From a virus, in IMG/VR virus record IMGVR_UViG_3300042868_013427, positions 1 through 63,269 of that record: a DNA stretch of 63,269 bases. One strand, written 5' to 3'. The translations under genes and the position numbers were made by a program. The notes beneath the pieces were generated by a model that was not told where the DNA came from, ran no database searches, and saw only the letters and a list, made by a program, of their open reading frames with translations. Positions 1,827 to 57,561 of this stretch are shown here, piece by piece (the stretch's first letter is position 1; each line of letters begins with the position of its first letter).

Positions 1827-1930
1827 CTTCTCTTGATCTTTCTCTTTACATCTTTGGACACTGCAAAGTACACAATCCAAAGCACAATGCATATTATCAT
1901 CATATCGGTTAGATCAATTCCTTTTGTCAT
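1823..1930 (-). CDS. Very small single-pass membrane protein (35 aa)
   Basis: An ATG at 1930 opens a 35-codon frame with a hydrophobic core (MMIICIVLWIVYFAVS, roughly residues 10-25) followed by a strongly basic tail (KDVKRKIKRR). This is the pattern of a one-pass membrane protein held by positive charges on the cytoplasmic side. It starts inside the end of the preceding gene (17-base overlap), and its TGA overlaps the proposed GTG of the glycosyltransferase. The hydrophobic-then-basic layout and the tiling with neighbours support a real gene. The function is unknown. Confidence 0.55.
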   Translation of the reverse strand: MTKGIDLTDMMIICIVLWIVYFAVSKDVKRKIKRR

Positions 1931-2919: not shown

Positions 2920-3882
2920 CTAATATATCTTCTCTGAAACAGAAAACTTTTTTTGGCCAATGTTTTCTTTTACCCAGTCCTCTATGTTCTTTGTTGGCTT
3001 CCAACCTATTGATTTGATCTTTGTGTTGTCTGCCAGGGTCTCCTTTGCTTCTCCTGGCCTGCTAGGAACAAACTCTATGTCCTCGCTTATTCCTCTTGCA
3101 AGCTCTACAACAGAGACATTCTCCCCTGTTCCTACATTGAAGATCTCTCCTCCTACTTCATAGTTGGACATTGCAGCAATGTAGTTTGCCTCTACGATGT
3201 CTCCGACCCAGGTGAAGTCCCTTCTTTGGGATCCATCTCCAACAACCGTCAGTGCCTCTCCATTCTCATGCTGCCTAAGGAACTTTCCAACGACAGGAGC
3301 ATACGTTCCTTTTATTGGCTGCCTCTCACCAAAGACGTTGAAGTAGCGAAGTATGACAGCATCAACGCTCCAAAGACTGTGGTACATCTTGCAGAAGTCT
3401 TCGGCTGATGCCTTGCTTATTGAGTATGGGTTCAGCGGGTTTCTCACAGCAGTCTCGAGAAGTGGCATCGCGTGTCCGTTTCCATAGACAGAAGACGTCG
3501 AAGAATGGACCATCCTTCTTATGTTCAGCCTTCTGCATGCCTCAAGAACGTTCACCGTTCCTGTGGTGTTTGCATCGATTGCCATCTTTGGGTTCCTTAT
3601 CATCGGCTGTATCCTTGCCTCTGCAGCAAAGTGGAACACAGCATCGATCACACCGTTGTCTGTTGAAAACACCATTTCAAATATCTGGAACAGCTTGTCA
3701 AAGTCTGTGACATCGACCGAATGGTAGTATGTCGCATTTGGTGATTCATTCTTATAGAAGAACTCATTAGACCTTGCAGAGAGGTTGTCTATGACAAAGA
3801 CCTTGTGTCCTAGCGATATTAGCTTGTCCACCATGTGTGAACCTATGAAGCCACACCCTCCTGTGACTATGTATGTTTTCAT
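2920..3882 (-). CDS. NAD-dependent sugar epimerase/dehydratase (GalE-like)
   Basis: Predicted extended short-chain dehydrogenase acting on a nucleotide sugar. The Rossmann dinucleotide site TGGCGFIGSH is at residues 7-16, the catalytic pair is YSISK (Tyr153, Lys157), and HSSTSSVYG before it supplies the active-site Ser/Thr. PYS, RYFNVFGERQ and the FNVGTGE segment near residue 245 are also family features. The length of 320 residues is normal. The exact substrate (UDP-glucose, UDP-GlcNAc or another) cannot be read. The ATG overlaps the stop of the PLP-like gene, so the two are translationally coupled and probably act in one pathway, perhaps feeding the phage's glycosyltransferases. Confidence 0.9.
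   Translation of the reverse strand: MKTYIVTGGCGFIGSHMVDKLISLGHKVFVIDNLSARSNEFFYKNESPNATYYHSVDVTDFDKLFQIFEMVFSTDNGVIDAVFHFAAEARIQPMIRNPKMAIDANTTGTVNVLEACRRLNIRRMVHSSTSSVYGNGHAMPLLETAVRNPLNPYSISKASAEDFCKMYHSLWSVDAVILRYFNVFGERQPIKGTYAPVVGKFLRQHENGEALTVVGDGSQRRDFTWVGDIVEANYIAAMSNYEVGGEIFNVGTGENVSVVELARGISEDIEFVPSRPGEAKETLADNTKIKSIGWKPTKNIEDWVKENIGQKKFSVSEKIY
2921..2929 (-). promoter_or_regulatory. AT-rich promoter-like motif (GATATATTA)
   Basis: A GATATATTA element overlaps the stop of the epimerase gene, 45 bases upstream of the ATG at 2875. It is a weaker variant of the repeated GATATATAG-type element. Confidence 0.25.
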
Positions 3883-8377: not shown

Positions 8378-8617
8378 TTATATGCCCTTACTTTTCTTTG
8401 GTTTACTGTTCAATAGGTATGCTACCACGCAATAGATTAAGGTGAGCACCCCTGATGATACAACAGACTTTATTGGCGATCCTGCATGGTACAAATAGAC
8501 TGTTGCTAAAATCTGCATCAGTATTGCAACGATCGATGGGAGGAGAGGATCTATCCTCTTCTTGTTTCTTTCTACCAGCTCAGGATCACCGGCACTGCTG
8601 ATCTTTTTGAGTTCCAT
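8378..8617 (-). CDS. Small two-span membrane protein, 79 aa
   Basis: There is a charged N-terminus (about 24 residues), then two hydrophobic segments (around 26-44 and 50-69) with a short turn containing Gly-Ser-Pro, and a lysine-rich end (NSKPKKSKGI). Both ends are predicted cytoplasmic. Size and topology would suit a holin, but that is a guess. The gene begins 46 bases inside the end of the glycosidase gene, implying translational coupling. Confidence 0.6.
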   Translation of the reverse strand: MELKKISSAGDPELVERNKKRIDPLLPSIVAILMQILATVYLYHAGSPIKSVVSSGVLTLIYCVVAYLLNSKPKKSKGI

Positions 8618-9935: not shown

Positions 9936-10322
9936 TTACTTGAGGTTTAGGAGATAGAGGAGCTTGTTTGTCGCATTCTTCATGTCAAGGACGATGTCCT
10001 GAAGATCAAGGTCTCCCGTTGATTCAAACTCCTTGCAAACGCCGTCAAGGAACTCATTGAACTCTGTGAAGTAAGGTATCATTGTTTCTGCTGATACGTT
10101 TGGCTCTGACACAACAGAGAATGGAATCTTTGCCTTTCTTGTGAACATGTCTGGGTGCTTTCCCTTTGCAGCCTCAAACAGAGCATCGATGCTGTCGAGC
10201 AGAGAGTCGTAAAATCCTCCTAAAGCAACGTGTGCTGCATAGCTCTTCGTGTTCCAGTGGAACATGTGCGACTGGTCTCTTGTCTGAAGCAGCCTCTGTA
10301 TTGTGCCTTCTAGTTGTGCCAT
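9936..10322 (-). CDS. Ferritin/Dps-like phage protein (DUF5856-like)
   Basis: This is a helical protein whose first part (MFHWNTKSYAAHVALGGFYD, then LLDSIDALFEAAKGKHP) matches the helix-A/B layout of the Dps-like DUF5856 family seen in T4-related phages: H-W-N-x-x-S-x-A-x-H then Y-D-x-L-x-D-x-x-D. Histidines and acidic residues are spaced as for a ferroxidase-like site. Dps proteins store iron or protect DNA. The role in the phage is unknown and binding of metal is inferred. It is divergent from the next plus-strand gene and shares an AT-rich intergenic stretch. Confidence 0.7.
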   Translation of the reverse strand: MAQLEGTIQRLLQTRDQSHMFHWNTKSYAAHVALGGFYDSLLDSIDALFEAAKGKHPDMFTRKAKIPFSVVSEPNVSAETMIPYFTEFNEFLDGVCKEFESTGDLDLQDIVLDMKNATNKLLYLLNLK

Positions 10323-11411: not shown

Positions 11412-11864
11412 TTAAGAAGGAATCTGTGGCCATACTACTAGTTTAGGATCAGCTACATTAGTAATATCTCTTAGCTTTTGACGATACTCCTTCCATTGTA
11501 CTATTTTAGACTCTTCTAGTGATACATCAGGAAGTTGTGTCCAATCGCATTCCAAAAGAAGTATGTTTCTTTTAGATCTTATTAGCTGCCATTCCATTTC
11601 AACAAATTGATTGATTTCATCGCTGGTCATATCTCTCACCTGCTGATATTCAATCCATTCTGTTTCTGTCAACTCATATGTTGATTCAATGATAACCTTA
11701 TTTTCCATTGGTCCAATGTAGGGAACAAATCTTGCAGGATACCACCCATATTCTCTTAATGTTTCATTTGGAAGTATCTTGAAATTTGAAATATTGAGCC
11801 AATTCTCAGGTAGGGGTCTTGGTTGTTCTACAACCGATCCAGATTCTATTCTAACGTAATTCAT
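11412..11864 (-). CDS. Tail fibre assembly chaperone-like protein
   Basis: The C-terminal half matches the phage tail assembly chaperone pattern: RNILLLECDWTQLPDVSLE, then WKEYRQKLRDITNV and a final VVWPQIP. The consensus is L-L-x-x-(S/T/C)-D-W-T-Q-L-P-D, W-x-x-Y-R-Q-x-L-R-D, V-x-W-P. The N-terminal half is a variable beta region that begins like tail fibre accessory proteins. It is the last gene of the cassette that starts with the large collagen-like fibre, as expected for a fibre-specific chaperone. Confidence 0.8.
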   Translation of the reverse strand: MNYVRIESGSVVEQPRPLPENWLNISNFKILPNETLREYGWYPARFVPYIGPMENKVIIESTYELTETEWIEYQQVRDMTSDEINQFVEMEWQLIRSKRNILLLECDWTQLPDVSLEESKIVQWKEYRQKLRDITNVADPKLVVWPQIPS

Positions 11865-11868
11865 GGTT

Positions 11869-11878
11869 CTATTTATTC
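11869..11878 (-). promoter_or_regulatory. T4-late-promoter-like motif (GAATAAATAG)
   Basis: The minus strand reads GAATAAATAG four bases before the ATG at 11864. It is close to the T4 late promoter core TATAAATA and overlaps the end of the methyltransferase gene. Confidence 0.3.
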
Positions 11879-12478
11879 TATTTTCTTAAATACTGCCATT
11901 TCACGAAGACCTAATAACTCCAATCTACCATTTCTAATGAAGGATTCTTTTATAAATTCAATTGAAATGTATGGAATGTTTTCAAGCCTAGCTTCATTTA
12001 GTCCCCATTGATAGTCGTCAAAAACAAGGATTCCTCCTGGTTTTAGAAGAAGGTAAGATAGGACTGCATCTATCATGACATTAGAAGATTCATGGCTACC
12101 ATCTATATAAATCATGTCAAACAGAAGCTGTTTAGAAAATAGCTTTGGGAGCTCAACTTCAGATTTTCCAGTGATTGGTATGCATTTACCCGAACTAATA
12201 TGTTCCCTGAGGTTAAATGAAAATTTACCATACAAATCATCTACATCAAGATCATTTATCCTGTGCTCGTTGCTTCCTTGCCATGTATCCACACAGTAGA
12301 TACATGAACCATCGTTCTGAAGAAAGTTTTCTATGAACCATAATGCAGACTTGCCCTCAAATGATCCTATTTCTAATATCTTCGGGTAGTCGATTTTTTC
12401 TAATTCTGGTTTTACGTGGCAAACAAACTCAGATATGTTTTTGTACAACCAGTCCTGCGTAAATTTATATTCTTCCAT
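11873..12478 (-). CDS. SAM-dependent methyltransferase
   Basis: A class I Rossmann methyltransferase. ILEIGSFEGKSALWFIEN (residues 34-51) is the SAM-binding motif I (E-x-G-x-x-x-G), CVDTWQGSNEHR gives the acidic end of strand 2, FDMIYIDGSHESSNVMIDA matches motif IV of the Methyltransf_24 group, and LLKPGGILVFDDYQWG follows. Relatives are often found in polysaccharide or glycan clusters. It lies four bases from the adjacent glycosyltransferase-type gene. O-methylation of a sugar added by the neighbouring glycosyltransferases is an inference from context. Confidence 0.85.
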   Translation of the reverse strand: MEEYKFTQDWLYKNISEFVCHVKPELEKIDYPKILEIGSFEGKSALWFIENFLQNDGSCIYCVDTWQGSNEHRINDLDVDDLYGKFSFNLREHISSGKCIPITGKSEVELPKLFSKQLLFDMIYIDGSHESSNVMIDAVLSYLLLKPGGILVFDDYQWGLNEARLENIPYISIEFIKESFIRNGRLELLGLREMAVFKKIE

Positions 12479-12479
12479 T

Positions 12480-13262
12480 CTAATTAAAATTTCTTGAAAT
12501 ACTGTCCCAAAGATCCTTCCAATTTATATATGGATCCTTTTGCTCCTCAAATTGCAGATGAAGTGCAAGCGATGGAATAGGATTAAATAACATCACACGG
12601 TTTCTCCATATGTTAGAGATTGTGGTATCTTCTGTTATATTGTTTTTAATTCCCCATTCAGTCATGTATTCTGTGGCCAACGTGTAAAAATCAGGCCAGT
12701 TCTCTCTAACAATCTTTGGATTACACATCAAGGTAAAGGGAGAAAATGTAACTGTCCTCCAATGCCTATTTTTACCATACACAACCAGTGAATTCTCAAT
12801 GAATGATCCTGTGTAATTTCGCGGTTCATCAAATGGGTATATCGCAACTTCATTTTGAACCAATGAAGATATGTTCCCATACTCATCAATCATTTCTTGT
12901 ATTGCATCTTCATAATGTAGATAGTCATCCTCGACGAAGTATATGAGATCAGATGAAGATTCTTTTCCCATCTCAAATTGTTTTAGCGCACTTTCATTCC
13001 ATCCACGCTTTTCCAGCTCTATGAATTTGTAGTTAATAACAAAGTGATTAAAGATGGAATGTATTTTTTGTATTGTCTCATGTCTGGAATGGTCATCGAT
13101 CCATATGACATTTATCTCATGGGTTGATTTTGATATAGAGTGTGCCAAAGATGATATGCATCTTAATACTATCTCTGACTTTTCAGCTTTAACATACCTT
13201 GGAAGTGGGTGTGTGTGTATATCTAAAAAATCATGTGTTCTTAATATAACATCAACCTTCAT
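12480..13262 (-). CDS. Glycosyltransferase (GT-A, family 2-like), copy B
   Basis: The N-terminus KVDVILRTHDFLDIHTHPLP, then a strand-helix pattern with INVIWIDDHSRHET and SDLIYFVEDDYLHYEDAI, shows a GT-A fold with an acidic E-D-D metal site. It is a clear paralogue of the next gene upstream: the same DVxLRTH start, the same EDDYLH, the same RHWRTVTFSPFTLMCNP/WRTNQYTTFTFMCNP region and a similar C-terminal H-x-Q-F/Y ending. It overlaps that copy by four bases. The two copies probably add sugars in sequence or to different acceptors. Confidence 0.85.
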   Translation of the reverse strand: MKVDVILRTHDFLDIHTHPLPRYVKAEKSEIVLRCISSLAHSISKSTHEINVIWIDDHSRHETIQKIHSIFNHFVINYKFIELEKRGWNESALKQFEMGKESSSDLIYFVEDDYLHYEDAIQEMIDEYGNISSLVQNEVAIYPFDEPRNYTGSFIENSLVVYGKNRHWRTVTFSPFTLMCNPKIVRENWPDFYTLATEYMTEWGIKNNITEDTTISNIWRNRVMLFNPIPSLALHLQFEEQKDPYINWKDLWDSISRNFN

Positions 13263-14074
13263 TTATTTTCTCCCGATACATAATCGATATTTATGCTATC
13301 CCATAATTTTTTCCAATCAATGTATGGGTCCATCTGATCTTTGTATTGCATATGCAGTGCAACAGAAGGAATAGGGGTGAATAGGCAAACACTCTCTCTC
13401 CATATTTTGTTTATAGTAGTTCCTTCGTGTATGTTAAATGCTTCTCCCCATTCTGTTCCATACTCTGTTGCAAGAGTATAAAAAATGCTCCAATTCTTCC
13501 TGATTATTTCAGGGTTGCACATGAACGTGAATGTTGTGTATTGATTTGTTCTCCATCTTCTACCATGCCCATAGACAATTTTTGTTGGAATTATCCATCT
13601 TGGCTTGTAATTGTCTGGATCATCAAATGGGTGTATGGCCACCTCATCATTTAATTTATATTTGAACAGCTCATATGCACTGACCATTTCCTTTATTGCT
13701 TCAGGAAAATGTAGATAATCGTCCTCTACAAAATACACAAGATCTGCATCTGAATCCCTTCCTCGTTCAAATTGTGCAAGCGCGCTGCTATTCCATCCCT
13801 CAATTTCAAGTGCAATATACTCATATGAACATTTAGACTCTGTAAACAATTTATGTAGTGCTTCTATGCAATCACTGCTTGAATGATCATCATACCAGTA
13901 ATATTTGGCCTTAATTTCACTGTTCTCTGATGTAAAGTTTTGTACTGAGTTTACTAATGATTGAATACACTTGTATATTAGGGTGCTTTTATCAGAACCA
14001 CAGTACCTTTTTTCCGTGGTGTGAGAGTGGATGTCCCTTTTATTGTGAGTTCTTAGAACTACATCTATCTTCAT
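13259..14074 (-). CDS. Glycosyltransferase (GT-A, family 2-like), copy A
   Basis: Paralogue of the gene that follows it. It starts KIDVVLRTHNKRDIHSHTTE. YYWYDDHSSSDC matches the other copy's IWIDDHS, and ADLVYFVEDDYLHFPEAI carries the E-D-D site. At 271 residues it is slightly longer. Divergence between copies is moderate along the whole length, so the duplication is not recent. It lies two bases after the TPR glycosyltransferase stop. Donor and acceptor are unknown. Confidence 0.85.
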   Translation of the reverse strand: MKIDVVLRTHNKRDIHSHTTEKRYCGSDKSTLIYKCIQSLVNSVQNFTSENSEIKAKYYWYDDHSSSDCIEALHKLFTESKCSYEYIALEIEGWNSSALAQFERGRDSDADLVYFVEDDYLHFPEAIKEMVSAYELFKYKLNDEVAIHPFDDPDNYKPRWIIPTKIVYGHGRRWRTNQYTTFTFMCNPEIIRKNWSIFYTLATEYGTEWGEAFNIHEGTTINKIWRESVCLFTPIPSVALHMQYKDQMDPYIDWKKLWDSINIDYVSGENK

Positions 14075-14076
14075 CG

Positions 14077-15090
14077 TTAAATCCTAGTTAGTTCAAGAAG
14101 TGCTTCTCTTATCTCAAAGAATGGTGTTTCCCATTCTCCGTATGTCTTTTGTCTAAACAATCGAACAGAGTCATACCATCTAGATGTATTTCCAGGCACC
14201 GCCCAACTATAGTATGGCATTATCGGTGCAACAACCCATGTAGGAATTCCCAATGCCCCAGATAGGTGGGCAATTGAGGTGCAGGAGGTTATAACGAGAT
14301 CCAATCCTGCTATAATTGCAGCTGTGTCCTCCCATGTCTTCAGTTGTTCTCTTAAATCACCAAAAGGAAGGCCATCAACAAGATTTTCATCCCTTTGAAG
14401 AGAATAGAATGTTGTTCTTGGAACATTGTAGAGATCTATCATCAATTGCGGGTCAAACCTTCGATGTTGTTCATCCTCAAATTCTGGGTTTCCGCTCCAT
14501 CTTATTCCAACCTTTAAGTTTCCTGGTTTAGAAAAAAGTTCTCTTTTTGCAATTTCTTTCATATATGGAGATCCATCAAGATCTTCATATTCCATGTTTA
14601 ATATGAATGCAGCAGACATTCCGGGTATCCAATAATCATAATATGCACCATAGATAACTTCATTGTCTATGCATACGTATCCATGGCGTGAGAATATCTG
14701 CTTTAATTCAGGAGAACAAGATATAATTACCCTTGCCCCCATCTCCTTAAACTTTTTAGCAAACCGAAAATTCATTATTTGATCACCATACCCTCCTTCA
14801 CATCTAAAGAGAAGTGTCTTCCCTTCAAGAGGTTCATCCTTCCATATTTTTCCAGGTATTGGAGGAAGGCCAAAAACATTGATGAACCTTCCATAATTGA
14901 AGTGCTCAAATGCCTTTTTCATGTTTCCATGGCGCATTTCATGCCACCCAAGATTGAAAAGAACTCGTAAATCGTCCTGTGGCTGGGATCTAAGTATCTC
15001 TTCGCTTATTTCGGGATGTCCATTAGTTGATGCCTCTAACGCAATATCTAAAGGGTGTGTCTTTTCTTTTGTAGTTAATTTATTTACCAT
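14077..15090 (-). CDS. TPR plus GT-B (family 9-like) glycosyltransferase
   Basis: Residues 10-75 form tetratricopeptide-like helices (LDIALEASTNGHPEISEEIL, LFNLGWHEMRHGNMKKAFEH). Then a GT-B fold: RCEGGYGDQIMNFRFAKKF resembles the donor-fold glycine loop of heptosyltransferase-like family 9, and SCTSIAHLSGALGIPTWVVA is the C-terminal domain's S-x-x-x-H-x-x-x-x-L-G-x-P signature. KVGIRWSGNP is another family feature. TPR plus GT-B is the architecture of protein O-glycosyltransferases, though the family here is GT9-like and not clearly GT41. The ATG overlaps the RCC1 protein stop by one base (TAATG), tying it to that protein. Confidence 0.85.
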   Translation of the reverse strand: MVNKLTTKEKTHPLDIALEASTNGHPEISEEILRSQPQDDLRVLFNLGWHEMRHGNMKKAFEHFNYGRFINVFGLPPIPGKIWKDEPLEGKTLLFRCEGGYGDQIMNFRFAKKFKEMGARVIISCSPELKQIFSRHGYVCIDNEVIYGAYYDYWIPGMSAAFILNMEYEDLDGSPYMKEIAKRELFSKPGNLKVGIRWSGNPEFEDEQHRRFDPQLMIDLYNVPRTTFYSLQRDENLVDGLPFGDLREQLKTWEDTAAIIAGLDLVITSCTSIAHLSGALGIPTWVVAPIMPYYSWAVPGNTSRWYDSVRLFRQKTYGEWETPFFEIREALLELTRI

Positions 15091-18000
15091 TATACAACAT
15101 ATGATTGTTTTGCTATTGAAAACCCATAACCTAGAGTTATATCATCCCATATTGATAAAGTTCCTATCTGAACAGGTGTGCTTCTGTTTGCAGTTGTTCC
15201 ATTTCCAAGATTTCCTGCCGTGTTTAATCCCCATGCCCAAAGCGTTCCGTTTGTTGTAATGGCCATCGTAGACCCCCATCCATTCGATACCTTGCTCCAA
15301 ATGGCAGCCCCTATTTGAATAGGAGAAAAAAAACTAGTTCCCGATCTATTATTTCCTAATTCTCCAAAATATGCTGATCCAAACCCCCAAAGCGTTCCAT
15401 CTGTTTTCAATGCCATTGTTGAACCCCACCAGGTTCCTCCTCCTGGATTTACAGGAGTCATGCTTAATGTTAAGCTTGACCAGTTAGTGTCTGATCCTAC
15501 CTGAATGGCAGATGATGCTATCCCGCCAGGAACATTACTTCCTAATTGGCCATCCGACCCAGCACCCCACATCCAAAGCGTTCCATTTGTTTTTATTGCG
15601 CCACCATATCTTTGCGGCGTTCCTTTATAAATGATTGAATAACCCATTCCTACCTGGACAGGGCTTGATATGTAAGTAACTGGGCTTAATGGCATTGCTC
15701 CAGTTCCATTTCCAGGATAAGTCATGGTATGTCCAAGACCTAGGCCTCCTCCCGAATTCTCCCCCCATGCCCATATCGATGTGTTGCTTAGTGCAAGTGT
15801 CATAGATGGAGATCCATAAGAATAATTACCGTAGTTTTGTCTAAGGGATAACCAATTATTACTTGTGCCAACCTGAACAGGTGAACTCATGGCAGTGCCC
15901 AAGAAATTATCTCCTCTGTAAACTGTGCCAGCAACCCCCCATCTCCATAGAGTTGAATCGCTTCTTACTCCAAATGAAACATTTAATCCTGTTGCTATAT
16001 CCAGCCATCCAGTCAATGCACCAACCTGAACAGGTGAACTTGCGTTCGTTGCGTTGTTTGTTCCAAATTGCCCACTTGAGTTTAATCCTACTGCCCACAT
16101 TGTTCCATTTGTCCTAGTAAATAATGTGTGGCTTACACCAGGTGCGGCCTTTGACCACACTGCTAATGCACCTATCTGTTGTCTTGTACTAAATGCAACG
16201 CTAGAATTATTCAATCCTAACATTCCAGATGCATTGCTTCCAACCGCCCATAGCGTTCCTGATGTTGTTAAAGAGAAAGAGGTTCTATTTCCAATAAATA
16301 TCTGGCTCCATGCATTTCCTGCTCCAGTTTGCACTGGGCTGCTTCTGTTTAGAGCATCGCCGTGGCCAAGCTGCCCGCTAGTGTTGTTTCCCCACATCCA
16401 CATTGTTGATGTGGATTTTATTGCGCCAGAAGAAAGGTATCCTGCAAAAACTTTAGACCAGTTTGTGTCAGCTCCAATTTGCACAGGTGAGCTTCTGTTT
16501 ATAACGGTTCCATCTCCAAGGCTACCTGATAAGTTATTTCCCCATGCCCACAGCGTTCCTCCGGATTTCAATGCAAGAACATATCCAGCTCCAGCTGCTA
16601 CATCAATCCAGTCAGTTGCTGATCCTACTTGAACAGAAGAGCTGTAAGTTGTTGTATTGTTCTGGCCAAGGCCGCCTCTTTGATTATCGCCCCATGCCCA
16701 TAGTGTTCCATCAGTTTTTATTCCTGCTGAAGTGTATCCAAGTGATATTTTAGTGTAATTGGATGGGGCACCAAAAATAAATGTCTTCGGCTCCACAGGC
16801 CAATCTGCACCAGTTTTTCCATTGGATATATCTCCCCATGCCCAAAGAGTGCCATCTGTTTTCAGTCCTAATGTACCAAACTCATATGTTGCAACATTCG
16901 ACCAATTTGTTGCGGAATCCATCTGCGTAGGAAAGGATCTATCATTATTGAAATTGTTTCCTAATTGCCCTTCACCCCCTCTGCCCCAGGTCCAAAGTGT
17001 TCCATTGGTCTTTACTGCAGCTGTGTGCGAAGTAAATTCTGATGATGTATATGGACCTGCTGCAACCTTGCTCCAATTTGAATCGCTTCCTACCTGTACA
17101 GGTTCTGCTATGAATGTGTAGTTTACTGAAGTTAGACCTATTCCAAATGCAGTAGATGCCCTTCCCCAAGTCCATAGGGTTCCATTGGTTCTTATTGCCA
17201 TCACATACGATCTTCCTGCACTTATTGTCTGCCAATTAACATTGCTTGATACCTGTATTGGCGACGAAAGAGAAGTCCTCCAGCCAAGCTGGCCAGATGA
17301 GAATGCACCCCATGTATAAAGATCTCCTGTGCTTCTAACACCCATAACATGAGACCTCCCAGGATACACGTTTGACCAGGACCCTGAAATTTGAACAGGC
17401 GATGATACAGCAGAAAGACCTGGAGAAATTCCCCAATACCAAAAGCTTCCATCAGTCTTTTTTCCAGTTGTTATGCTTTCATTCAATGTTAAGCTTGACC
17501 AAGATGATGGCACTTGGTCAAGCTGATGAAGATAAGTCGGGCCTCTGTATGTTGAACCGGCTCCAATCATTTGGGCCATAACGCCATTGGAATTTATTCC
17601 CCATAGATAGGCGGTTCCATTTGATTTCACGCCAGAAAAGTGGGTGAATCCTGCTGAAACATCCGTCCAATTTCTTCCGCCAAGCTGAACAGGAGAGCTC
17701 CTTGGAACTGTTGTAAGCACAGAGGCCCACCCAAGACCAAATTCACCGTTTAATGGTGATCCCCAACCATGAAGAACATTATCTGAATTTAATGCCATCA
17801 TGAATGAGGTCCCAACGTTCACATGATTTACAGATCCTGATATATCACTTGATATTTGAACAGGGGAACTTTTTGTCACAGCAGTTCCATCTCCTAATTC
17901 ATAGTTAGTATTTTGACCCCACATCCAGATGTTACCGCTTGTTGTTATTGCAGTGCTATTATTGAAACCTGCTGAAGCCTTAGACCAATTTGTTACGCCT

Positions 18001-21000
18001 GTTCCTACCTGTGTTGGAGAGCTTACATTTGTTGTAGAAGAAGATAGGGTGTTGTTTAATCCAAGTATTCCTCCTGAATTATCTCCCCATGAATAGATGG
18101 AATTTGCATTTACTCCAAATGTACATAAAGAACCTGCTGTTGGTTCTGACCATCCAGTAAGAGATCCTATTTGAACTGGTGAGCTCCTGGATATAAATAT
18201 TCCCTGTCCAAGCTGCCCGCTTGTTCCAAGTCCCCATGCCCATAAAGTTCCATTTGTTGTTGTTGCAACAACATGGTTGCCCGTTCCTCCAGAAACGTAT
18301 GCCCAATCACTCCTTGAACCTATCTGAACAGGTGAGCTTCTGTTTATAACGGTTCCATCTCCAATCTGCCCTGATGGATTTTCCCCCCATCCCCATAATG
18401 TCCCGTTGGTTTTTGTTGCAGTTACTGATGTGTTCGTTGATGTTATATTTGACCAATTTGTATCAGTTCCAACCTGTATAGGAGATACAGCTGCACCAAC
18501 TTCCTGTGTGGTTCCAATTCCCAGCTGACCTGCTCCATTTCCTCCCCACCCCCACAACGTCCCATTAGATTTTATGGCATGTGTAGAAAAATAAGAAATG
18601 GATATCTTTGAATTTGACCAGTCATTGCTTGTCCCTATTTGAATTGGAGAGCTTACATTTACAAGAGGAGCAAGTGCATTGTTGTGTCCAAGGTTTCCGT
18701 ATAAGTTATTATCGCCTCCCCATGACCAGATCTTTCCAGATGATATGACTGCGTTAAACCTTCCTCCGGTTGATATAGAGTTTGCTGTCGTTACTGTTAT
18801 TCCAGCCCATGGATCAGCACTAAAATTCCTTGCGCCCGCATCGTTTTGTTCTCCTATCGATGATGGGCTAACCTGTGCGTGAGAGTTTGACCCCCATGTC
18901 CAGATCCTTCCATCTGTTGTTAGGCCCATGCTATGGCTTCTTCCTCCCTTTGCATAGGACCATGTTAGTCCACCGCTAACAAGGAACGGTGCAAACTCAT
19001 TTGTTCCCTGGTTTCCATTTCCAAGCTGTCCATTCTGGTTTAGGCCCCATGCCCAAAGAGAACCATCACTTTTTCTCCCAAGAACATGAGTGTAACCTGC
19101 GTCTATCGTGGTCCAAGCGTTATCTGAAATTGTGCCAATTCTTCCTGGAGAGCTCCTCTGTGTGACTACAACAGTCACCCCCAATTGACCGGTTGCACCG
19201 GTGCCCCATGACCATATTGTTCCGTTACTTTTCAAAGCTATCGTGTATGATTGACCTCCTGATACCTTTGTCCAGTTGGTATCTACGCCAATCTGAACAG
19301 GTGAGCTTTTATTTACGACTGTTCCGTCTCCAAGCTGGCCTGATACATTTCCACCCCATGCCCACAACGTTCCATTGGTTTTTATTGCAATTGTATGCGA
19401 CACACCTGCTGCAGCATCCAACCAATTCGTGTCTGCTCCAATCTGTACAGGTGAGCTTCTGTTTATAACGGTTCCATCTCCAATCTGCCCTGTGGGATTT
19501 GCGCCCCAAGTCCAGAGCGTTCCATTGGTCATTATTGCAACAGTGTGCGTAGATTTCGTTGACACCTTGCTCCATGAAGTCAATGCTCCTATCTGAACAG
19601 GTGAGCTTTTATTTACGACTGTTCCGTCTCCAAGCTGGCCTGATGTATTTAGCCCCCATCCCCATAGTGTGCCATTGGTTCTGATTGCCATCATGTTATA
19701 TTCACCAGAGTCAATGATTGACCAGTTCGTATCGCTGCCAACTGCGGTGGGTATTGTTGGAACCCTAAGACCCATGACAGTAGCAATCGCAATGCCGGTC
19801 TGAGAATTTAACCCCCATGCCCAAAGTGTTCCGTCGGTTCTTACTCCAACGGTATAATTTAATCCTGCGAATACGTTCTGCCATGTGTTTAATGCTCCTA
19901 CCTGGACAGGTGAACTCTTAGTGACTGCGGTGTTGTCGCCTATTTGTCCTGATGTGTTCACGCCCCATCCCCATAGGGTGCCATTTGTTCTGACTGCCAT
20001 TGTATGGCTATGTCCTGTGTTAACAACGTTCCAATTGGCCAAGGATCCTATCTGGACAGGTGAACTCTTAGTGACTGCGGTGTTGTCGCCGAGCATCCCT
20101 GATGTTCCTATTCCCCATGCCCATAATTGACCGCTTGTTGCCAGTGCAAATGTGGTCTGGCTCTTTACTACGACCTTTGTCCAGGTTGGATTTCCCTGAA
20201 GAAGTGGATAATTAGGTATTGCAAATCCAATTTTTCCAGATGTGTTCTCGCCCCATGCCCAAAGGGTCCCATCCGTCTTTACAGCAATGGTGTGGTCTGT
20301 TGCGCAGTCTATACTTTGCCAATTAGTTAGCGAGCCAACCTGAACAGGAGAAGATCTGGACACAGTAGAAATGTGACCTGTTCTAAAATTTGTGCCAAGC
20401 CCCCAGGTCCATAAAGCTCCGTTTGTTCTAGTTGCGCCTGAGTAAGAAGAACCTGCAGAAATGTTTAACCACCCCGTTAAGCTACCAACCTGAACAGGCG
20501 AGCTCCTACTTACAACCGTGCCTGATCCTAGCTCACCAGTGGAATTACCACCCCAGGTCCACAGGGTTCCATCAGTCATTAGAGCCATTGTATGGCTAAC
20601 ACCGATGCTTATTTTTGACCATGTCGTAAGTGCTCCGATCTGGACAGGCGAGCTTTTGTTTACAACAGTCCCGTCTCCGAGCTGGCCCGATGAATTGTTG
20701 CCCCACATCCAAAGGGTTCCATTTGTTTTTATTGCACCTGAAGTTGTTCCAAAGTATGAAGTTTGAACAGATGCCCAGTTTGTATCAGTTCCGATTTGAA
20801 CTGGCGAGCTCCTGCTTATGATGGTTCCATCTCCAAGCTGGCCAGTTGTGCCAAGACCCCATGCCCATAAAGTGCCATCTGTTCTTATTGCAAGCACATG
20901 ATTCGTTCCTCTATTAGAAAAGCTAGACCAGTTTTTATCATATTGATTTAGCGGCAATGGCATACTAGGTGTTTGAAAGAATGCATTGCTTGTGTTTGAT

Positions 21001-21686
21001 GCACCCCATGCCCAAAGAGTTCCGTCGGTTTTTATTCCAATAGTTTGGGTGTTTCCTGCAACTACCTTTGTCCAATTGTTCTGGTTTCCAATTTGTATTG
21101 GAGAACTTTTTTGTACAACCGTTCCATCACCTAGTTGGCCATATGTATTGTCTCCCCATGCCCATAGGGTTCCATTGGTCTTTACTGCCATCACACTAGA
21201 GGTGAGATAGTTTATGCTGGACCAATTTGTGTCAGTTCCAACTTGAACAGGAGAATTACGTGTTGAGGCTGCAAGAAATCCAAGGCTTCCGTTTGTTCCT
21301 GTTCCCCAGCCCCAAAGCGTTCCATCAGATCTTATTGCATGGGTTGTATTTCCACCTGCTGAAACTTTTGACCAAGAAGTAAGGCCACCAATCTGAACAG
21401 GAGAAGATCTAGTAGTAGCGGTATTATCACCAAGCTGACCATTCGTTCCTAGTCCCCACGCCCATAACGTTCCATCATTTCTTAATGAAATAGTATGGGA
21501 CAGACCAACTGTTATTTGGCTAGGTAAAGTTGAATATACACTAGTTCCAACTAGAGAAGGGCTTACATATGTAAAACTATTGTCTAATTGCCCACTTTCT
21601 GCAGATCCTGCACCCCATAATGATCTTATGGTAACAGGTCCTGTTATCTTATTTCTAAGCTGTACTATGTTTTTCAGGAAAGGCAT
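15090..21686 (-). CDS. Giant RCC1-repeat beta-propeller protein, 2198 aa
   Basis: Nearly the entire protein is RCC1-type repeats of about 50 residues with the core (D/N)GTLWAWGxNxxGQLGDGT, then SSPVQIG, then NWxxVxAG and HTxAIK. I count about 42 copies by the WxWG motif, including a degenerate first one. This would make about six seven-bladed propellers, although blades may be shared. The first 20 residues (FLKNIVQLRNKITGPV) are unlike a repeat and may be an attachment segment. No signal peptide or membrane segment is seen. It lies directly after a fibre gene and a small virion-type gene, so a virion surface role in adhesion is likely but unproved. It is followed by glycosyltransferase genes. 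Confidence 0.9.
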   Translation of the reverse strand: MPFLKNIVQLRNKITGPVTIRSLWGAGSAESGQLDNSFTYVSPSLVGTSVYSTLPSQITVGLSHTISLRNDGTLWAWGLGTNGQLGDNTATTRSSPVQIGGLTSWSKVSAGGNTTHAIRSDGTLWGWGTGTNGSLGFLAASTRNSPVQVGTDTNWSSINYLTSSVMAVKTNGTLWAWGDNTYGQLGDGTVVQKSSPIQIGNQNNWTKVVAGNTQTIGIKTDGTLWAWGASNTSNAFFQTPSMPLPLNQYDKNWSSFSNRGTNHVLAIRTDGTLWAWGLGTTGQLGDGTIISRSSPVQIGTDTNWASVQTSYFGTTSGAIKTNGTLWMWGNNSSGQLGDGTVVNKSSPVQIGALTTWSKISIGVSHTMALMTDGTLWTWGGNSTGELGSGTVVSRSSPVQVGSLTGWLNISAGSSYSGATRTNGALWTWGLGTNFRTGHISTVSRSSPVQVGSLTNWQSIDCATDHTIAVKTDGTLWAWGENTSGKIGFAIPNYPLLQGNPTWTKVVVKSQTTFALATSGQLWAWGIGTSGMLGDNTAVTKSSPVQIGSLANWNVVNTGHSHTMAVRTNGTLWGWGVNTSGQIGDNTAVTKSSPVQVGALNTWQNVFAGLNYTVGVRTDGTLWAWGLNSQTGIAIATVMGLRVPTIPTAVGSDTNWSIIDSGEYNMMAIRTNGTLWGWGLNTSGQLGDGTVVNKSSPVQIGALTSWSKVSTKSTHTVAIMTNGTLWTWGANPTGQIGDGTVINRSSPVQIGADTNWLDAAAGVSHTIAIKTNGTLWAWGGNVSGQLGDGTVVNKSSPVQIGVDTNWTKVSGGQSYTIALKSNGTIWSWGTGATGQLGVTVVVTQRSSPGRIGTISDNAWTTIDAGYTHVLGRKSDGSLWAWGLNQNGQLGNGNQGTNEFAPFLVSGGLTWSYAKGGRSHSMGLTTDGRIWTWGSNSHAQVSPSSIGEQNDAGARNFSADPWAGITVTTANSISTGGRFNAVISSGKIWSWGGDNNLYGNLGHNNALAPLVNVSSPIQIGTSNDWSNSKISISYFSTHAIKSNGTLWGWGGNGAGQLGIGTTQEVGAAVSPIQVGTDTNWSNITSTNTSVTATKTNGTLWGWGENPSGQIGDGTVINRSSPVQIGSRSDWAYVSGGTGNHVVATTTNGTLWAWGLGTSGQLGQGIFISRSSPVQIGSLTGWSEPTAGSLCTFGVNANSIYSWGDNSGGILGLNNTLSSSTTNVSSPTQVGTGVTNWSKASAGFNNSTAITTSGNIWMWGQNTNYELGDGTAVTKSSPVQISSDISGSVNHVNVGTSFMMALNSDNVLHGWGSPLNGEFGLGWASVLTTVPRSSPVQLGGRNWTDVSAGFTHFSGVKSNGTAYLWGINSNGVMAQMIGAGSTYRGPTYLHQLDQVPSSWSSLTLNESITTGKKTDGSFWYWGISPGLSAVSSPVQISGSWSNVYPGRSHVMGVRSTGDLYTWGAFSSGQLGWRTSLSSPIQVSSNVNWQTISAGRSYVMAIRTNGTLWTWGRASTAFGIGLTSVNYTFIAEPVQVGSDSNWSKVAAGPYTSSEFTSHTAAVKTNGTLWTWGRGGEGQLGNNFNNDRSFPTQMDSATNWSNVATYEFGTLGLKTDGTLWAWGDISNGKTGADWPVEPKTFIFGAPSNYTKISLGYTSAGIKTDGTLWAWGDNQRGGLGQNNTTTYSSSVQVGSATDWIDVAAGAGYVLALKSGGTLWAWGNNLSGSLGDGTVINRSSPVQIGADTNWSKVFAGYLSSGAIKSTSTMWMWGNNTSGQLGHGDALNRSSPVQTGAGNAWSQIFIGNRTSFSLTTSGTLWAVGSNASGMLGLNNSSVAFSTRQQIGALAVWSKAAPGVSHTLFTRTNGTMWAVGLNSSGQFGTNNATNASSPVQVGALTGWLDIATGLNVSFGVRSDSTLWRWGVAGTVYRGDNFLGTAMSSPVQVGTSNNWLSLRQNYGNYSYGSPSMTLALSNTSIWAWGENSGGGLGLGHTMTYPGNGTGAMPLSPVTYISSPVQVGMGYSIIYKGTPQRYGGAIKTNGTLWMWGAGSDGQLGSNVPGGIASSAIQVGSDTNWSSLTLSMTPVNPGGGTWWGSTMALKTDGTLWGFGSAYFGELGNNRSGTSFFSPIQIGAAIWSKVSNGWGSTMAITTNGTLWAWGLNTAGNLGNGTTANRSTPVQIGTLSIWDDITLGYGFSIAKQSYVV
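15300..21500 (-). repeat. RCC1 tandem repeat array (about 150-bp unit)
   Basis: At the DNA level the gene repeats about every 150 bases with conserved blocks around the TTCCAT-rich WxWG codons and the TGAACAGGTGAGCT-like SPVQ codons. Units are similar but not identical, unlike the perfect repeat at the window's right end, so the array is older or under diversifying selection. Confidence 0.8.
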
Positions 21687-21689
21687 AAC

Positions 21690-22055
21690 TTATATGTTTT
21701 GTCCTCCATTAAAGCAATACCAGTTTGAGCCCCCATCTTCTGTGACAAAACAAAACACATCTTTTTTTCCATTGCTGTTTGTAAGAGTAGGAGGAGACCC
21801 ATTTGGCCAATCAAATGTCAATGGCCATGTTATGGAAACAGAAGTAGATGTATAAGTTAATATGAGGGTAAAATTCGTTACTATTCCGCTTGTTGGAACG
21901 TTATTTATAGTTATGCTAGATATGCTCTCTGTTAAAGAAACGCTGAATATATTCGCAACATTAAGATCTAACGTTAAAGCTCCGCTGGAAGAAGATGCTG
22001 TTGCCTTTTCTTCCAGAGAGAATGTTGCTACTCCTGCTGCAGTTATGAGTGCCAT
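21690..22055 (-). CDS. Small virion beta-domain protein, 121 aa
   Basis: The protein has a beta-rich pattern: ITAAGVATFSLEEKATASSS, then SLTESISSITINNVPTSGIV, a WPxxxxWPNGSPPT motif and a C-terminal EDGGSNWYCFNGGQNI. This layout (SGxxxxFTLxL, WP, WPNGxxPTLT, DGGxxWYxFxGG) resembles small beta-sandwich domains common in phage tail fibre proteins. It lies between the collagen-like fibre and the RCC1 protein, four bases before the latter, and is probably a fibre component or adaptor. The specific role is unknown. Confidence 0.75.
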   Translation of the reverse strand: MALITAAGVATFSLEEKATASSSSGALTLDLNVANIFSVSLTESISSITINNVPTSGIVTNFTLILTYTSTSVSITWPLTFDWPNGSPPTLTNSNGKKDVFCFVTEDGGSNWYCFNGGQNI

Positions 22056-22073
22056 GGCTTAGATTTTTATATC

Positions 22074-22083
22074 CTATATATTC
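22074..22083 (-). promoter_or_regulatory. Late-promoter-like motif (GAATATATAG)
   Basis: GAATATATAG lies 18 bases upstream of the ATG at 22055, in the short gap after the fibre gene. It may allow the small domain protein and RCC1 genes to be transcribed separately from the fibre. Confidence 0.45.
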
Positions 22084-22089
22084 TAGAGT

Positions 22090-25000
22090 TTACACTATGG
22101 TAAACGTGCCAATGGAGCTCAAGACATTCCAGTCTGAATCTGCTGTAACGCATACTATTTCTATGGAAGCTCTTGCTCCATTGTTAGTCACCTCAATGTA
22201 ACCCGCCAGTCCAGTTGTTGTTGCAAGCTGATCAAAGTACATCGTCTTTCCTACCGGCTGTCTTACCCTAAAGTAACCACCTGCGTTTTTGTTCGTTAAT
22301 CTAATGCTGGCTCCTACTGCAGATGTTGTTGGAAGGGTCATGTCAATTCTTCCAGCTCCATTTACTATGTAGTTGGTATTCACAGTCATGTTAGTAGCAC
22401 CAGTTGCAGTGGTCCATGAACCGCCTGCGCCAGAAGCACCTTGTAGACCCTGTATGCCAAGACCTTGCAGACCCTGAAGACCTTGTGTTCCCTGATTTCC
22501 TTGTGCACCTTGAGCACCTTGAGTTCCCTGAACACCTTGGTTTCCTTGGTTTCCTTGGTTGCCCTGTCTTCCTTGAAGACCTTGCAAACCTTGTGTTCCT
22601 TGAACACCTTGATTGCCCTGATTGCCTTGAGCACCTTGTGCTCCTTGCAGTCCCTGCAGACCCTGAACACCCTGATTGCCCTGAACTCCTTGTGTTCCCT
22701 GAACACCCTGATTGCCCTGAGCTCCTTGTGCACCTTGAACGCCCTGATTGCCCTGAGCTCCTTGTGGACCTTGAACGCCCTGATTGCCTTGTGCACCCTG
22801 CAGACCCTGAAGGCCTTGTGTTCCATTTGTTCCTGCAGTTCCCTGGGTCCCTTGGACCCCTTGGTTGCCCTGAGTTCCCTGTGTCCCTTGGACACCCTGG
22901 TTTCCTTGGTTGCCCTGAGCACCTTGTGCACCTTGTGTTCCCTGAACGCCTTGGTTTCCTTGTACACCCTGCAGACCTTGAAGGCCTTGTGTTCCATTTG
23001 TTCCTGCAACACCCTGTGTCCCCTGTGTTCCTTGGACTCCTTGATTGCCTTGATTGCCCTGAGAACCCTGTGCGCCTTGTGCTCCTTGTGCACCTTGAGT
23101 TCCCTGTGTCCCTTGAACGCCTTGGTTTCCTTGTACACCTTGTGCCCCTTGAACGCCCTGGTTTCCTTGTGCCCCTTGTGCTCCTTGAGCACCTTGCAGA
23201 CCTTGAGTTCCCTGAACTCCTTGAAGACCCTGTATTCCTTGAACACCCTGGAATCCTTGAAGACCTTGTGATCCTCTAGATCCAAGGGTTGTTACCAGGT
23301 ATGAGTAGTGTACCGTTCCTTCTGTGTAGAAGCTTATGGTCCTATTTTGGTTATCAAGGTTGTTTACATAAATATAGACGATTAACCTATCTGTTGCTGA
23401 CAATGATGCAGAGGTTGCAACAGCGTTTGTCTTTACTTCAACAGGGGTTGTATTGTTAACAGACCATTCAAGAGGTGCGACATCAGAAGTAAAGAGAAGC
23501 GTGGCTGTTGCTCCGTCATACTTTGAAACAGTGAAGTAGTATTCAAGGTTATCGTTCTCTGTGTTCTTTGTGAAATAGACATAGCTATGCCACAGACCGT
23601 TAGGGATGACCAAAACATTAGGATTTCCGACATCCGTTATCCATCCAGAATTGACTTGAACATTCTGCTGATTTGCAGTGAGATTGACCGTGATTGTGGT
23701 TTGACCAGCTGTTGTCGTACTTGTTCCAAGCTGTTTATATGGACTAGGGGTCTGTGAAACAGAATCATTAAAGAAGTAGTTAGCTCCTCCAGATATACCA
23801 TCAAGTCCTTGATTTCCCTGTCTTCCTTGTAAGCCTTGAAGACCCTGAAGGCCTTGCAGACCCTGAAGACCTTGAATTCCCTGTGAACCTTGAACTCCTT
23901 GAAGACCCTGAATTCCTTGAACTCCTTGAGCACCTTGCGTTCCCTGTGTTCCCTGAACCCCTTGATTTCCTTGATTGCCCTGAACGCCCTGAACCCCTTG
24001 TGCTCCCTGAGCACCTTGCGTTCCCTGTGTTCCCTGAACCCCTTGATTTCCTTGAGCGCCTTGTGCACCTTGGGTTCCCTGAACACCCTGATTCCCCTGG
24101 TTGCCCTGTGCTCCTTGTGCACCCTGCAGGCCTTGAAGACCCTGGGTTCCCTGAACGCCTTGGTTGCCCTGATTTCCTTGAGCACCTTCAGTTCCCTGAA
24201 CACCTTGGTTTCCTTGTGCTCCTTGTGTGCCTTGAGTTCCCTGAACGCCTTGTGTGCCTTGTGTGCCTTGAACTCCTTCAGTTCCCTGAACGCCTTGGTT
24301 TCCTTGTGCTCCTTGTGCTCCTTGTGTGCCTTGAGTTCCCTGAACGCCTTGTGTACCTTGTGTGCCTTGAGAACCTTCTGTTCCTTGAACACCTTGCATG
24401 CCTTGAACACCTTCAGTTCCCTGAACGCCTTGTGTGCCTTGTGTGCCTTGAGCACCTTCAGTTCCCTGAACCCCCTGGTTTCCTTGTGCCCCTTGTGCCC
24501 CTTGAACACCTTGCAGACCTTGAGTTCCCTGAACGCCTTGGTTTCCTTGAGCTCCCTGGTTTCCTTGTAGTCCTTGAAGGCCTTGAATTCCTTCAGTTCC
24601 CTGAACCCCCTGGTTTCCTTGTGCACCTTGCGGGCCTTGGTTTCCTTGTGTGCCTTGAGAACCTTCTGTTCCTTGAACACCTTGCATGCCTTGAACACCT
24701 TCAGTTCCCTGAACGCCCTGGTTTCCTTGTGTACCTTGATTTCCCTGATTTCCTTGAATGCCTTGCAGACCTTGTATTCCCTGCGCACCCTGGTTTCCTT
24801 GAGCTCCTTGAGCACCCTGAATTCCCTGTACGCCTTGTAAGCCTTGGACACCTTCAACACCCTGTGTACCTTGAACGCCCTGGTTGCCCTGCATTCCATC
24901 AAAGCCCTGAACGCCCTGAATTCCCTGGACGCCTTCAACTCCTTGGGTTCCCTGTGTGCCCTGACTTCCTTGGAATCCCTGCATTCCATCAAAGCCCTGA

Positions 25001-27060
25001 ACGCCCTGAATTCCCTGGACGCCTTCAACTCCTTGGGTTCCCTGTGGACCATCAAACCCCTGATCTCCCTGTGGACCCTGCGGACCATCAAGGCCCTGAA
25101 CTCCCTGTGTTCCTAATTCGCCCTGGTTTCCTTGCAGACCCTGAAGCCCTTGAATACCTTGTACGCCTTGAGGTCCCTGAAGACCTTGGAGCCCAACAGC
25201 AATTGGTCCTTGAAGCCCCTGTAATCCTACGTTTCCTTGGTTTCCTTGGTTTCCTTGTGTTCCTTGAGTGCCTTGTGCTCCCTGAGCACCCTGCAGACCC
25301 TGAAGGCCTTGTGTTCCTTGAATTCCTTGAATGCCTTGTGTTCCTTGAGTGCCTTGTGCTCCCTGGGCACCCTGCAGACCTTGCATTCCCTGTGTCCCTT
25401 GAACGCCCTGCGTGCCTTGTGCTCCTTGAGCACCTTGCGTTCCCTGTGTTCCCTGAACTCCCTGATTTCCCTGGTTGCCTTGAGCACCCTGAAGACCCTG
25501 AAGACCTTGAACACCTTGATTGCCCTGATTTCCTTGGTTGCCTTGTGCACCTTGTGCCCCCTGAACTCCTTGGTTTCCTTGGTTGCCCTGTCTTCCTTGC
25601 AGGCCTTGAAGGCCTTGTATTCCTTGGGTTCCTTGAGCTCCTTGAGTTCCCTGTGCCCCTTGAACTCCTTGATTTCCTTGGTTGCCTTGTGCACCTTGAG
25701 TCCCTTGAACACCCTGGTTTCCTTGGTTGCCCTGTCTTCCTTGCAGGCCTTGAAGTCCTTGTATTCCTTGGGTGCCTTGGGCTCCTTGCGCCCCCTGAAC
25801 TCCCTGATTTCCTTGAAGACCTTGCAGACCTTGAATTCCCTGAAGACCTTGCATCCCCTGTGTGCCTTGTGCACCTTGGTTTCCTTGAAGTCCCTGAAGG
25901 CCCTGAGCGCCATCAGATCCAGTTCCTTGGAAGCCCTGAAATCCTTGGAAGCCCTGATTTCCATCTAAGCCTATTCCTCCACTGAGGTTGACTATCCAGT
26001 AATCGTAGGTTCCACTACCCAAAGAAAAGTCAACGAATACTTCCAGATCTCCGGTTGCTTGGTTGTAAGAGACAACATCTCCAAGCATGTAATCAGTCAA
26101 GGAATTTGCAACAACGACCCTCTGTGCAACGGTGTATGAAAGACCGTCATCAACAGTAAGATTTATGGTTACACCGGAAGCTATTGCAAGAGATGTGCCA
26201 GAGCTTGTTTCATAGCGGTCTCCTGATGCACCAACTTTTCCCTGGATGCCTTGTGCGCCCTGTCTTCCCTGTAGGCCTTGAACTCCTGTGCCCTGATTTC
26301 CCTGATTTCCCTGCGCTCCTTGGGCTCCCTGTGTTCCTTGTCTTCCCTGTAGGCCTTGAACGCCTGAACCCTGGATTCCTTGTGTTCCCTGTGTCCCTTG
26401 AACACCTTGGTTGCCTTGGTTTCCTTGCCTTCCCTGTGCTCCTTGATTTCCTTGAAGTCCTTGAAGTCCTTGGCTTCCCTGGGGGCCTGATGCAGGCCCC
26501 TGGAATCCCTGAAGACCTTGGAACCCACCGCCGCCACCGCCGCCAGGAAGGTTCTCTATTCCCTTAAGACCGATGTATTTGTAACAGGTTATTGCAGGAG
26601 GGCTAGATGCCTCTCCTGTGCTTTGGTAGTTTAGTTCATCATATTTTTGATTGAACCTAACTACATAAGTTTCTGTGTTTGGATAGAAGAATATTGCGTA
26701 GTAGTCAGAAGGAACTGGGATCGTGTAGTTGCCAGAAGGGTCCTTGAACCAAACTATTATCTCATACTTCTCAGCACCGTTGTAGGGAAGAACATATGTG
26801 AGTCGCGCGTCGCTGAATGATACTGAGCTTCCCTCTACCGTCGATAGAACTTGCTTGTCTATCTTCTCGATTATGTCCATCCCGCTTGCAGCGTAGATGG
26901 CACCGTCCGGAAAGGATGGACCGTACAGGGGATTGATTGATGGTATCAGTCCAGTGTACAGAAGTATTGTGTTTCCGAAGAGGTTGTCAGAGTTGAATGG
27001 GTAGTTGAACCTCATCAACATCCGCTCATCCGGAATAAATTGGTCTACTCTAAGTGCCAA
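22090..27060 (-). CDS. Collagen-like tail fibre, 1656 aa
   Basis: Predicted trimeric fibre. Residues 1-172 are the shared N-terminal domain ([36 protein letters not shown]). A Gly stretch leads into long G-X-Q triplet repeats, a putative collagen-type triple helix with X variable (Leu, Asn, Ala, Val, Thr, Ile). Two globular insertions interrupt it, near residues 275-363 and 1087-1260, and the C-terminal 110 residues ([10 protein letters not shown] onward) form a beta knob. The start is a TTG at 27060; no ATG fits, and the same is true of one paralogue. It heads the RCC1/glycosyltransferase cassette. Confidence 0.85.
22430..26530 (-). repeat. Gly-Xaa-Gln collagen-like triplet repeats
   Basis: The 9-bp codon pattern for Gly-Xaa-Gln repeats over roughly 3.4 kb in three blocks, interrupted by two non-repetitive inserts at about 23,280-23,800 and 25,975-26,235. 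The repeat lacks stops in several frames and produces long antisense open frames that are not genes. Confidence 0.9.
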
Positions 27061-57511: not shown

Positions 57512-57561
57512 GTGCTTTTATCTTTTTGATTGATGATTGAACAAATATACCAAAAGTCGGC

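What the first reader, a model, noticed from the sequence alone, without database searches (positions are those of the whole stretch)
11412..27060. Possible glycosylated adhesin system: collagen fibre, RCC1 propeller, three glycosyltransferases, methyltransferase and chaperone
One tight minus-strand unit contains a fibre, a small virion domain protein, a 2198-residue RCC1-repeat protein, a TPR glycosyltransferase that starts in the RCC1 stop, two paralogous family-2 glycosyltransferases, a methyltransferase and a fibre chaperone-like gene. Gene order and coupling suggest the modifying enzymes act on the adhesin made just before them. TPR plus GT-B is the layout of protein O-glycosyltransferases. 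A virion adhesin decorated with methylated glycans would be a new type of receptor engagement or immune/neutralisation shield. The alternative is that the enzymes alter the host surface.
Basis: partly seen in the sequence, partly recalled or inferred. Interest (0 to 1): 0.85.

Follow-up and report, generated by a model that had tools for sequence, protein, structure and literature searches.

The report
Phage propeller adhesin with dedicated glycosyltransferase
A fragment of a large phage carries a gene for a giant string of six beta-propellers, probably on its tail, followed directly by a sugar-adding enzyme, and the same pairing recurs in most related phages checked, which suggests these phages sugar-coat their own attachment protein.

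Summary
11412-27060 (-) encodes a collagen-like fibre, a fibre-tip-type protein, a 2198-aa RCC1 protein (42 blades, six seven-bladed propellers), a TPR-like/GT-B enzyme starting in the RCC1 stop codon, two GT2 paralogues (51% identical), a class-24 methyltransferase and a tail-fibre chaperone. A scan seeded with RCC1 alone found the enzyme in 49 of 74 new loci; most negatives are truncated. GT2 and methyltransferase are optional. AlphaFold (pLDDT 93.5) plus Foldseek put TibC, which heptosylates autotransporter adhesins, first among solved structures. Phage RCC1 blades carry a Ser-Ser-Pro signature (114 of 115 clusters with the enzyme; 2 of 71 non-viral blades) at a loop-strand boundary: a candidate acceptor. 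RCC1 proteins of other phages are in virions by published MS. Relatives add sulfotransferase, APS-kinase-like, HldE-like and 2OG-oxygenase genes. Best reading: phage-encoded glycosylation of a virion propeller adhesin, with variable tailoring. No modification was observed; published accounts assign comparable phage gene clusters to host-surface modification.

The parts
22090..27060 (-). collagen-like (G-x-Q-G repeat) tail fibre, 1656 aa (TTG start)
   Evidence: Pfam Collagen 532 bits; 175 G-x-Q-G matches. Start codon not proven.
21690..22055 (-). 121-aa fibre-tip-type protein (SD121)
   Evidence: PHROG tail-fibre families to 8.6e-18; a homologous stretch upstream of RCC1 in many relatives
15090..21686 (-). 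RCC1 propeller protein, 2198 aa, 42 blades = six seven-bladed propellers; about 25 blades carry S-S-P; proposed virion adhesin and glycan acceptor
   Evidence: Pfam, blade count, AlphaFold/Foldseek of propeller 1, PHROG 4219 1.6e-182
14077..15090 (-). TPR-like + GT-B (GT9/TibC-like) glycosyltransferase, 337 aa; G100-x-G102-D103 invariant
   Evidence: AlphaFold pLDDT 93.5, Foldseek top hit TibC, alignment A2
13259..14074 (-). family-2 glycosyltransferase GT2a, 271 aa
   Evidence: Pfam 8e-4, sub-threshold; 51% identical to GT2b
12480..13262 (-). family-2 glycosyltransferase GT2b, 260 aa
   Evidence: Pfam PF00535 2.1e-7
11873..12478 (-). class-24 SAM methyltransferase, 201 aa
   Evidence: Pfam PF13578 5.2e-18; a class-24 neighbour in other phages also hits the rhamnosyl O-methyltransferase family
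11412..11864 (-). tail-fibre assembly chaperone, 150 aa
   Evidence: Pfam PF16778 1e-16; PHROG tail-fibre assembly
2920..3882 (-). nucleotide-sugar epimerase, possible donor-sugar gene (association inferred only)
   Evidence: GalE-like 169 bits, below equivalog cut-off

Best explanation
The locus encodes a tail-associated receptor-binding apparatus and its own modification enzymes. The RCC1 protein is a virion adhesin of six beta-propellers, carried by or near the fibre/fibre-tip proteins and assembled with the chaperone. The TPR/GT-B enzyme binds the newly made RCC1 protein through its helical N-terminus and transfers a sugar from a nucleotide donor to Ser/Thr hydroxyls repeated once per blade, most likely at the conserved Ser-Ser-Pro between the long A-B loop and strand B. 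GT2 enzymes extend the sugar and the methyltransferase caps it; other phages use sulfotransferases, GT25 or hydroxylases instead. The result is a repetitively decorated propeller surface that changes receptor binding or hides the adhesin. Shown: gene content, pairing, fold models, the blade signature. Inferred: activity, acceptor, donor, location in this virion, benefit.
For: RCC1 directly upstream of TPR-GT in 71/71 readable loci. 23 of 25 assessable TPR-GT clusters at 60% identity lie within 10 kb of RCC1. Pairing persists at 25-42% TPR-GT identity, in cyanophages BUCT-ZZ01 and S-SRM01 and marine virus AG-345-E08. RCC1-seeded scan: 49/74 loci have TPR-GT. Minimal loci hold only RCC1, TPR-GT and chaperone (7 loci). 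Foldseek: TibC first, then GT9 heptosyltransferases. TPR-GT fused to a sulfotransferase domain in many phages, with an APS-kinase-like neighbour. HldE-like kinase/adenylyltransferase downstream in L158 and RfaE-II-like genes elsewhere, fitting an ADP-sugar donor. S-S at the blade site: 75-91% of blades in linked phages versus 2.8% non-viral; 114 of 115 TPR-GT+ clusters have it, 7 of 23 TPR-GT- clusters lack it (Fisher 1e-5, clusters not independent). RCC1 apparently fused to fibre modules in L100, L194. RCC1 virion proteins by MS in W70 (PMC11370258) and GAP32 (PMC5259590).
Against: No glycan or activity measured. Virion location is extrapolated from distant RCC1 proteins. S-SRM01 has the enzyme but mostly x-T-P instead of S-S-P blades. 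Sixteen S-S-P clusters show no TPR-GT; most are short or cut near RCC1, but L227, the L194 group and L296 have several kb on both sides. S-S-P could be a structural clade signature; W32 and K46 are phage-specific too. TPR-GT relatives in Azospirillum and Burkholderia, three neighbourhoods checked, are not beside annotated RCC1 genes, so the family is not RCC1-specific. TPR-GT queries were all seeded from RCC1-linked members.
Confidence: 0.6

Rival explanations
1. The enzymes modify the host surface polysaccharide during infection, blocking superinfection, and sit in a host-interaction island next to fibre genes only because that island is variable.
For: This is the published reading for comparable tail-fibre/glycosyltransferase islands of pelagimyophages (PMC7029224) and cyanophage and jumbo-phage clusters (PMC7824862). 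GT2, GT25, epimerase and HldE/RfaE-like genes also serve LPS synthesis.
Against: It does not predict RCC1 as immediate neighbour in 71/71 loci or TPR-GT placed between RCC1 copies. Nearest solved fold is a protein glycosyltransferase. No clear membrane segment in TPR-GT, GT2a, GT2b or MT by a simple hydropathy scan (maximum 1.7), unlike Gtr-type O-antigen converters (own knowledge).
Confidence: 0.2
2. The enzymes modify another virion protein (the collagen-like fibre or SD121) and RCC1 is only a syntenic neighbour.
For: Fibre and SD121-like genes are in the same unit; animal collagens are glycosylated on hydroxylysine (own knowledge), and 2OG oxygenase genes occur in some relatives.
Against: No match to the collagen gene was seen next to many RCC1/TPR-GT pairs; the window fibre has 0.8% Lys. 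RCC1, not the fibre, is the constant partner.
Confidence: 0.12
3. The glycosyltransferases modify phage DNA bases.
For: Phage glycosyltransferases often do so; stated in PMC12619734.
Against: None of the neighbours scanned is an enzyme typical of base hypermodification such as a nucleotide kinase; linkage is to tail genes.
Confidence: 0.05
4. RCC1 packages or condenses phage DNA, as its name suggests, and the enzymes are unrelated.
For: Proposed for RCC1-like virion proteins in the Vequintavirinae literature (PMC11370258).
Against: RCC1 genes lie among fibre genes and appear fused to fibre modules; RCC1 is a generic propeller name.
Confidence: 0.03

Closest known systems
Bacterial autotransporter heptosyltransferases (BAHT: TibC, AAH) with TibA/AIDA-I
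   Same: soluble GT-B enzyme acting on a repeat adhesin; best solved-structure match of the phage enzyme; TibC modifies Ser residues spread along TibA (PMC4358343)
   Different: TibC has an N-terminal beta-barrel, a four-cysteine iron finger and a dodecamer; the phage enzyme has helical TPR-like hairpins and lacks the cysteines. The proposed acceptor is a propeller, not a beta-helix autotransporter.
GT9 LPS heptosyltransferases (WaaC, WaaF)
   Same: GT-B fold, next best Foldseek hits
   Different: act on LPS core; no TPR region; about 11-13% identity
TPR-fused protein O-glycosyltransferases (OGT, SPINDLY; GT41)
   Same: TPR plus GT-B; SPY is a weaker Foldseek hit (5.6e-4)
   Different: short TPR region, GT core closer to GT9/TibC
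Mycobacteriophage virion glycosylation (Freeman et al. 2023, cited in PMC12619734; the paper itself not available here)
   Same: phage-encoded glycosyltransferases decorate virion proteins
   Different: capsid and tail-tube subunits; no RCC1 propeller known to me
RCC1-like virion proteins of W70 (Septuagintavirus) and GAP32
   Same: RCC1-type propeller proteins in virions by MS
   Different: no neighbouring glycosyltransferase annotated in W70, no S-S-P
Pelagimyophage host recognition cluster
   Same: island with tail fibres, glycosyltransferases, rfaE
   Different: interpreted by its authors as host O-antigen modification; the passages read do not mention an RCC1 pairing

Membership tests
BAHT (TibC) family | GT-B/GT9-like catalytic core | tested here: met
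   Foldseek top hits 4rap/4rb4, E 6e-6, TM about 0.5
BAHT (TibC) family | iron finger, four conserved Cys in the C-lobe | tested here: not met
   only Cys 97, 125, 140, 270 in the window enzyme, none in the C-terminal 67 residues; feature from PMC4358343
BAHT (TibC) family | N-terminal beta-barrel | tested here: not met
   N-terminus is four helices in the model
BAHT (TibC) family | catalytic Asp (D110) | tested here: inconclusive
   D103 in G-x-G-D invariant in 48 sequences; residue equivalence not mapped
BAHT (TibC) family | acts on a repeat adhesin | tested here: inconclusive
   propeller neighbour constant, activity unknown
GT41 (OGT/SPY) | TPR superhelix fused to GT-B | tested here: inconclusive
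   short TPR-like region; relatives with Pfam TPRs; structure nearer TibC/GT9
RCC1-like seven-bladed propeller | seven four-stranded blades per propeller | tested here: met
   42 blades; about 28 strands in propeller 1; UVR8/HERC2 TM 0.81-0.87
Gtr-type O-antigen conversion | membrane GtrA/GtrB/Gtr module | tested here: not met
   no clear membrane segments by hydropathy; only a weak GtrB-like PHROG hit for GT2b, E 0.012
Phage virion glycosylation systems | glycan on purified virion protein | not testable with these tools
   needs mass spectrometry

The most novel reading that the evidence does not exclude
A widespread, previously undescribed class of aquatic phage adhesins: RCC1 propellers carrying one Ser-Ser-Pro (or Thr-Pro) glycan acceptor per blade, modified by a dedicated TPR/TibC-like enzyme and diversified by swappable sulfation, methylation, hydroxylation and GT2/GT25 modules, so that phages vary the chemistry rather than only the sequence of their attachment protein.
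Probability: 0.4. Interest if true: 0.85.

Novelty: new variant of a known kind. Interest (0 to 1): 0.66.

Why it matters
Glycosyltransferases in aquatic phage tail islands are usually explained as host-surface modifiers. A fixed pairing with a tail-type propeller across very divergent phages points to the phage's own adhesin instead, gives a concrete acceptor motif to test, and makes post-translational diversification of receptor binding testable in two cultured cyanophages.

Tried and rejected
N-glycosylation sequons: 77 N-x-S/T versus 40 expected from composition in RCC1, but the RCC1 consensus itself supplies many (NGT and the like), so this was not used. Pfam/NCBIfam naming of the TPR enzyme failed. 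PDB sequence search of the TPR-GT profile gave mainly TPR proteins. GT2a has no phage relative in the annotated collection by tblastn. The bacterial-genome scan of the TPR-GT gave only two MAG contigs. Strict translational coupling as a conserved feature was rejected. Promoter/terminator scans were at chance level. A strict S-S-P requirement was rejected because of S-SRM01.

Full report
What is there. The record is a 63-kb virus contig; its portal is closest to huge metagenomic phages (42% to a 462-kb genome), and it carries T4-like topoisomerase and SbcC-like genes, so the window is probably a fragment of a large myovirus. The RCC1 protein has 42 blades, six complete seven-bladed propellers. 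Propeller 1 models with about 28 strands and matches UVR8 and HERC2.

Eighty viral loci with a close TPR-GT relative were fetched. Wherever upstream sequence is readable, 71 of 71, RCC1 is the immediate upstream gene. Between TPR-GT and the fibre chaperone the content varies: GT2 alone, methyltransferase plus GT2, other genes, or nothing (7 loci). So RCC1 and TPR-GT are the fixed pair, and GT2 and methyltransferase are optional. A scan seeded with RCC1 only gave 74 new loci, 49 with TPR-GT. Among TPR-GT clusters at 60% identity, 23 of 25 assessable lie within 10 kb of RCC1. The pairing holds at 25-42% enzyme identity and in named phages. A caveat is that the enzyme queries were taken from linked loci.

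The enzyme. The TPR-GT has no Pfam or NCBIfam family. With a 48-sequence alignment AlphaFold gives pLDDT 93.5 and pTM 0.91, with two N-terminal helical hairpins before an alternating strand/helix core. Foldseek ranks TibC first, then GT9 heptosyltransferases, which makes it GT-B; SPINDLY, OGT homologue and HMW1C are weaker. TibC transfers heptose to Ser of autotransporter adhesins (PMC4358343). The phage enzyme lacks the TibC iron finger and beta-barrel, so it is not a BAHT member, but it may work like one. G-x-G-D is invariant.

A possible acceptor. Each phage blade tends to carry Ser-Ser-Pro where non-viral RCC1 has Thr/variable-Pro: 75.5% of blades in the window clade, 90.6% in other linked phages, 2.8% in non-viral proteins. 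S22 and S21 rank first and third among phage-specific conserved columns. In the model, S94-S95 sit at the start of strand B after the long A-B loop. A scan seeded with a phage RCC1 lacking S-S-P recovered both types: every locus with TPR-GT had S-S in more than half of its blades, and the low-S-S loci had no TPR-GT. Over 138 k-mer clusters: 114 TPR-GT+/SS+, 1 TPR-GT+/SS-, 16 TPR-GT-/SS+, 7 TPR-GT-/SS-. The single exception, S-SRM01, keeps a hydroxyl as Thr-Pro in most blades. Clusters are not independent lineages and many contigs are fragments, so this is correlation.

Tailoring genes. In one large clade the TPR-GT is fused to a sulfotransferase domain, with an APS-kinase-like gene nearby. BUCT-ZZ01 carries what looks like a C-terminal methyltransferase fusion (sub-threshold). 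Other neighbours are GT25, methyltransferases, 2OG oxygenases, UDP-galactopyranose mutase, and an HldE-like bifunctional protein (HldE-like at 199 bits against a cut-off of 521, so subfamily level only). HldE and RfaE-II homologues beside a TibC-like enzyme fit an ADP-heptose-type donor, in some phages at least.

Is RCC1 on the virion? Not shown here. In E. coli phage W70 three RCC1 proteins of the PHROG family that our protein matches were found by MS in purified particles (PMC11370258), and GAP32 has one (PMC5259590). In marine loci RCC1 appears fused behind tail-fibre-type modules (judged by eye), and in Clostridioides phage LIBA6276 it sits next to annotated tail-fibre genes.

Known or new. 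Virion glycosylation is known from mycobacteriophages (cited in PMC12619734). Comparable glycosyltransferase islands are published as host-surface modification systems. I therefore call it a new variant of a known kind.

Noticed in passing
window 57537-61604 (+) and 62652-63269: second collagen-like G-x-Q-G fibre gene and more such repeat sequence at the contig end, including a perfect 180-bp tandem repeat; possible assembly break.
   Followed up: no
window 1119-1892 and 2920-3882 (-): another GT2-like gene and a GalE-like nucleotide-sugar epimerase, possibly feeding the same pathway.
   Followed up: partly
window 8572-9177 (-): NAGPA-type phosphodiester glycosidase domain with a hydrophobic N-terminus.
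   Followed up: no
window 9936-10322 (-): Dps-like starvation protein, PHROG 858, 1.3e-14.
   Followed up: no
L175 1-10400: Contig in a Patescibacteria MAG with S-S-P RCC1, sulfotransferase/TPR-GT protein, GT2-like and SD121-like genes: perhaps a phage of that group or a misbinned contig.
   Followed up: partly
L164-L171: Group of near-identical phages with a TPR-GT relative but no RCC1 nearby; a gene of about 1700 aa lies upstream. Its possible substrate was not examined.
   Followed up: no
L098, L102-L156: Sulfotransferase/TPR-GT fusion, often set between single-propeller RCC1 genes, with an APS-kinase-like neighbour: possible sulfated virion proteins.
   Followed up: partly
L099, L100, L180-L186: Loci with several 2OG oxygenase-like, sulfotransferase-like and glycosyltransferase-like genes interleaved with RCC1 genes.
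   Followed up: partly
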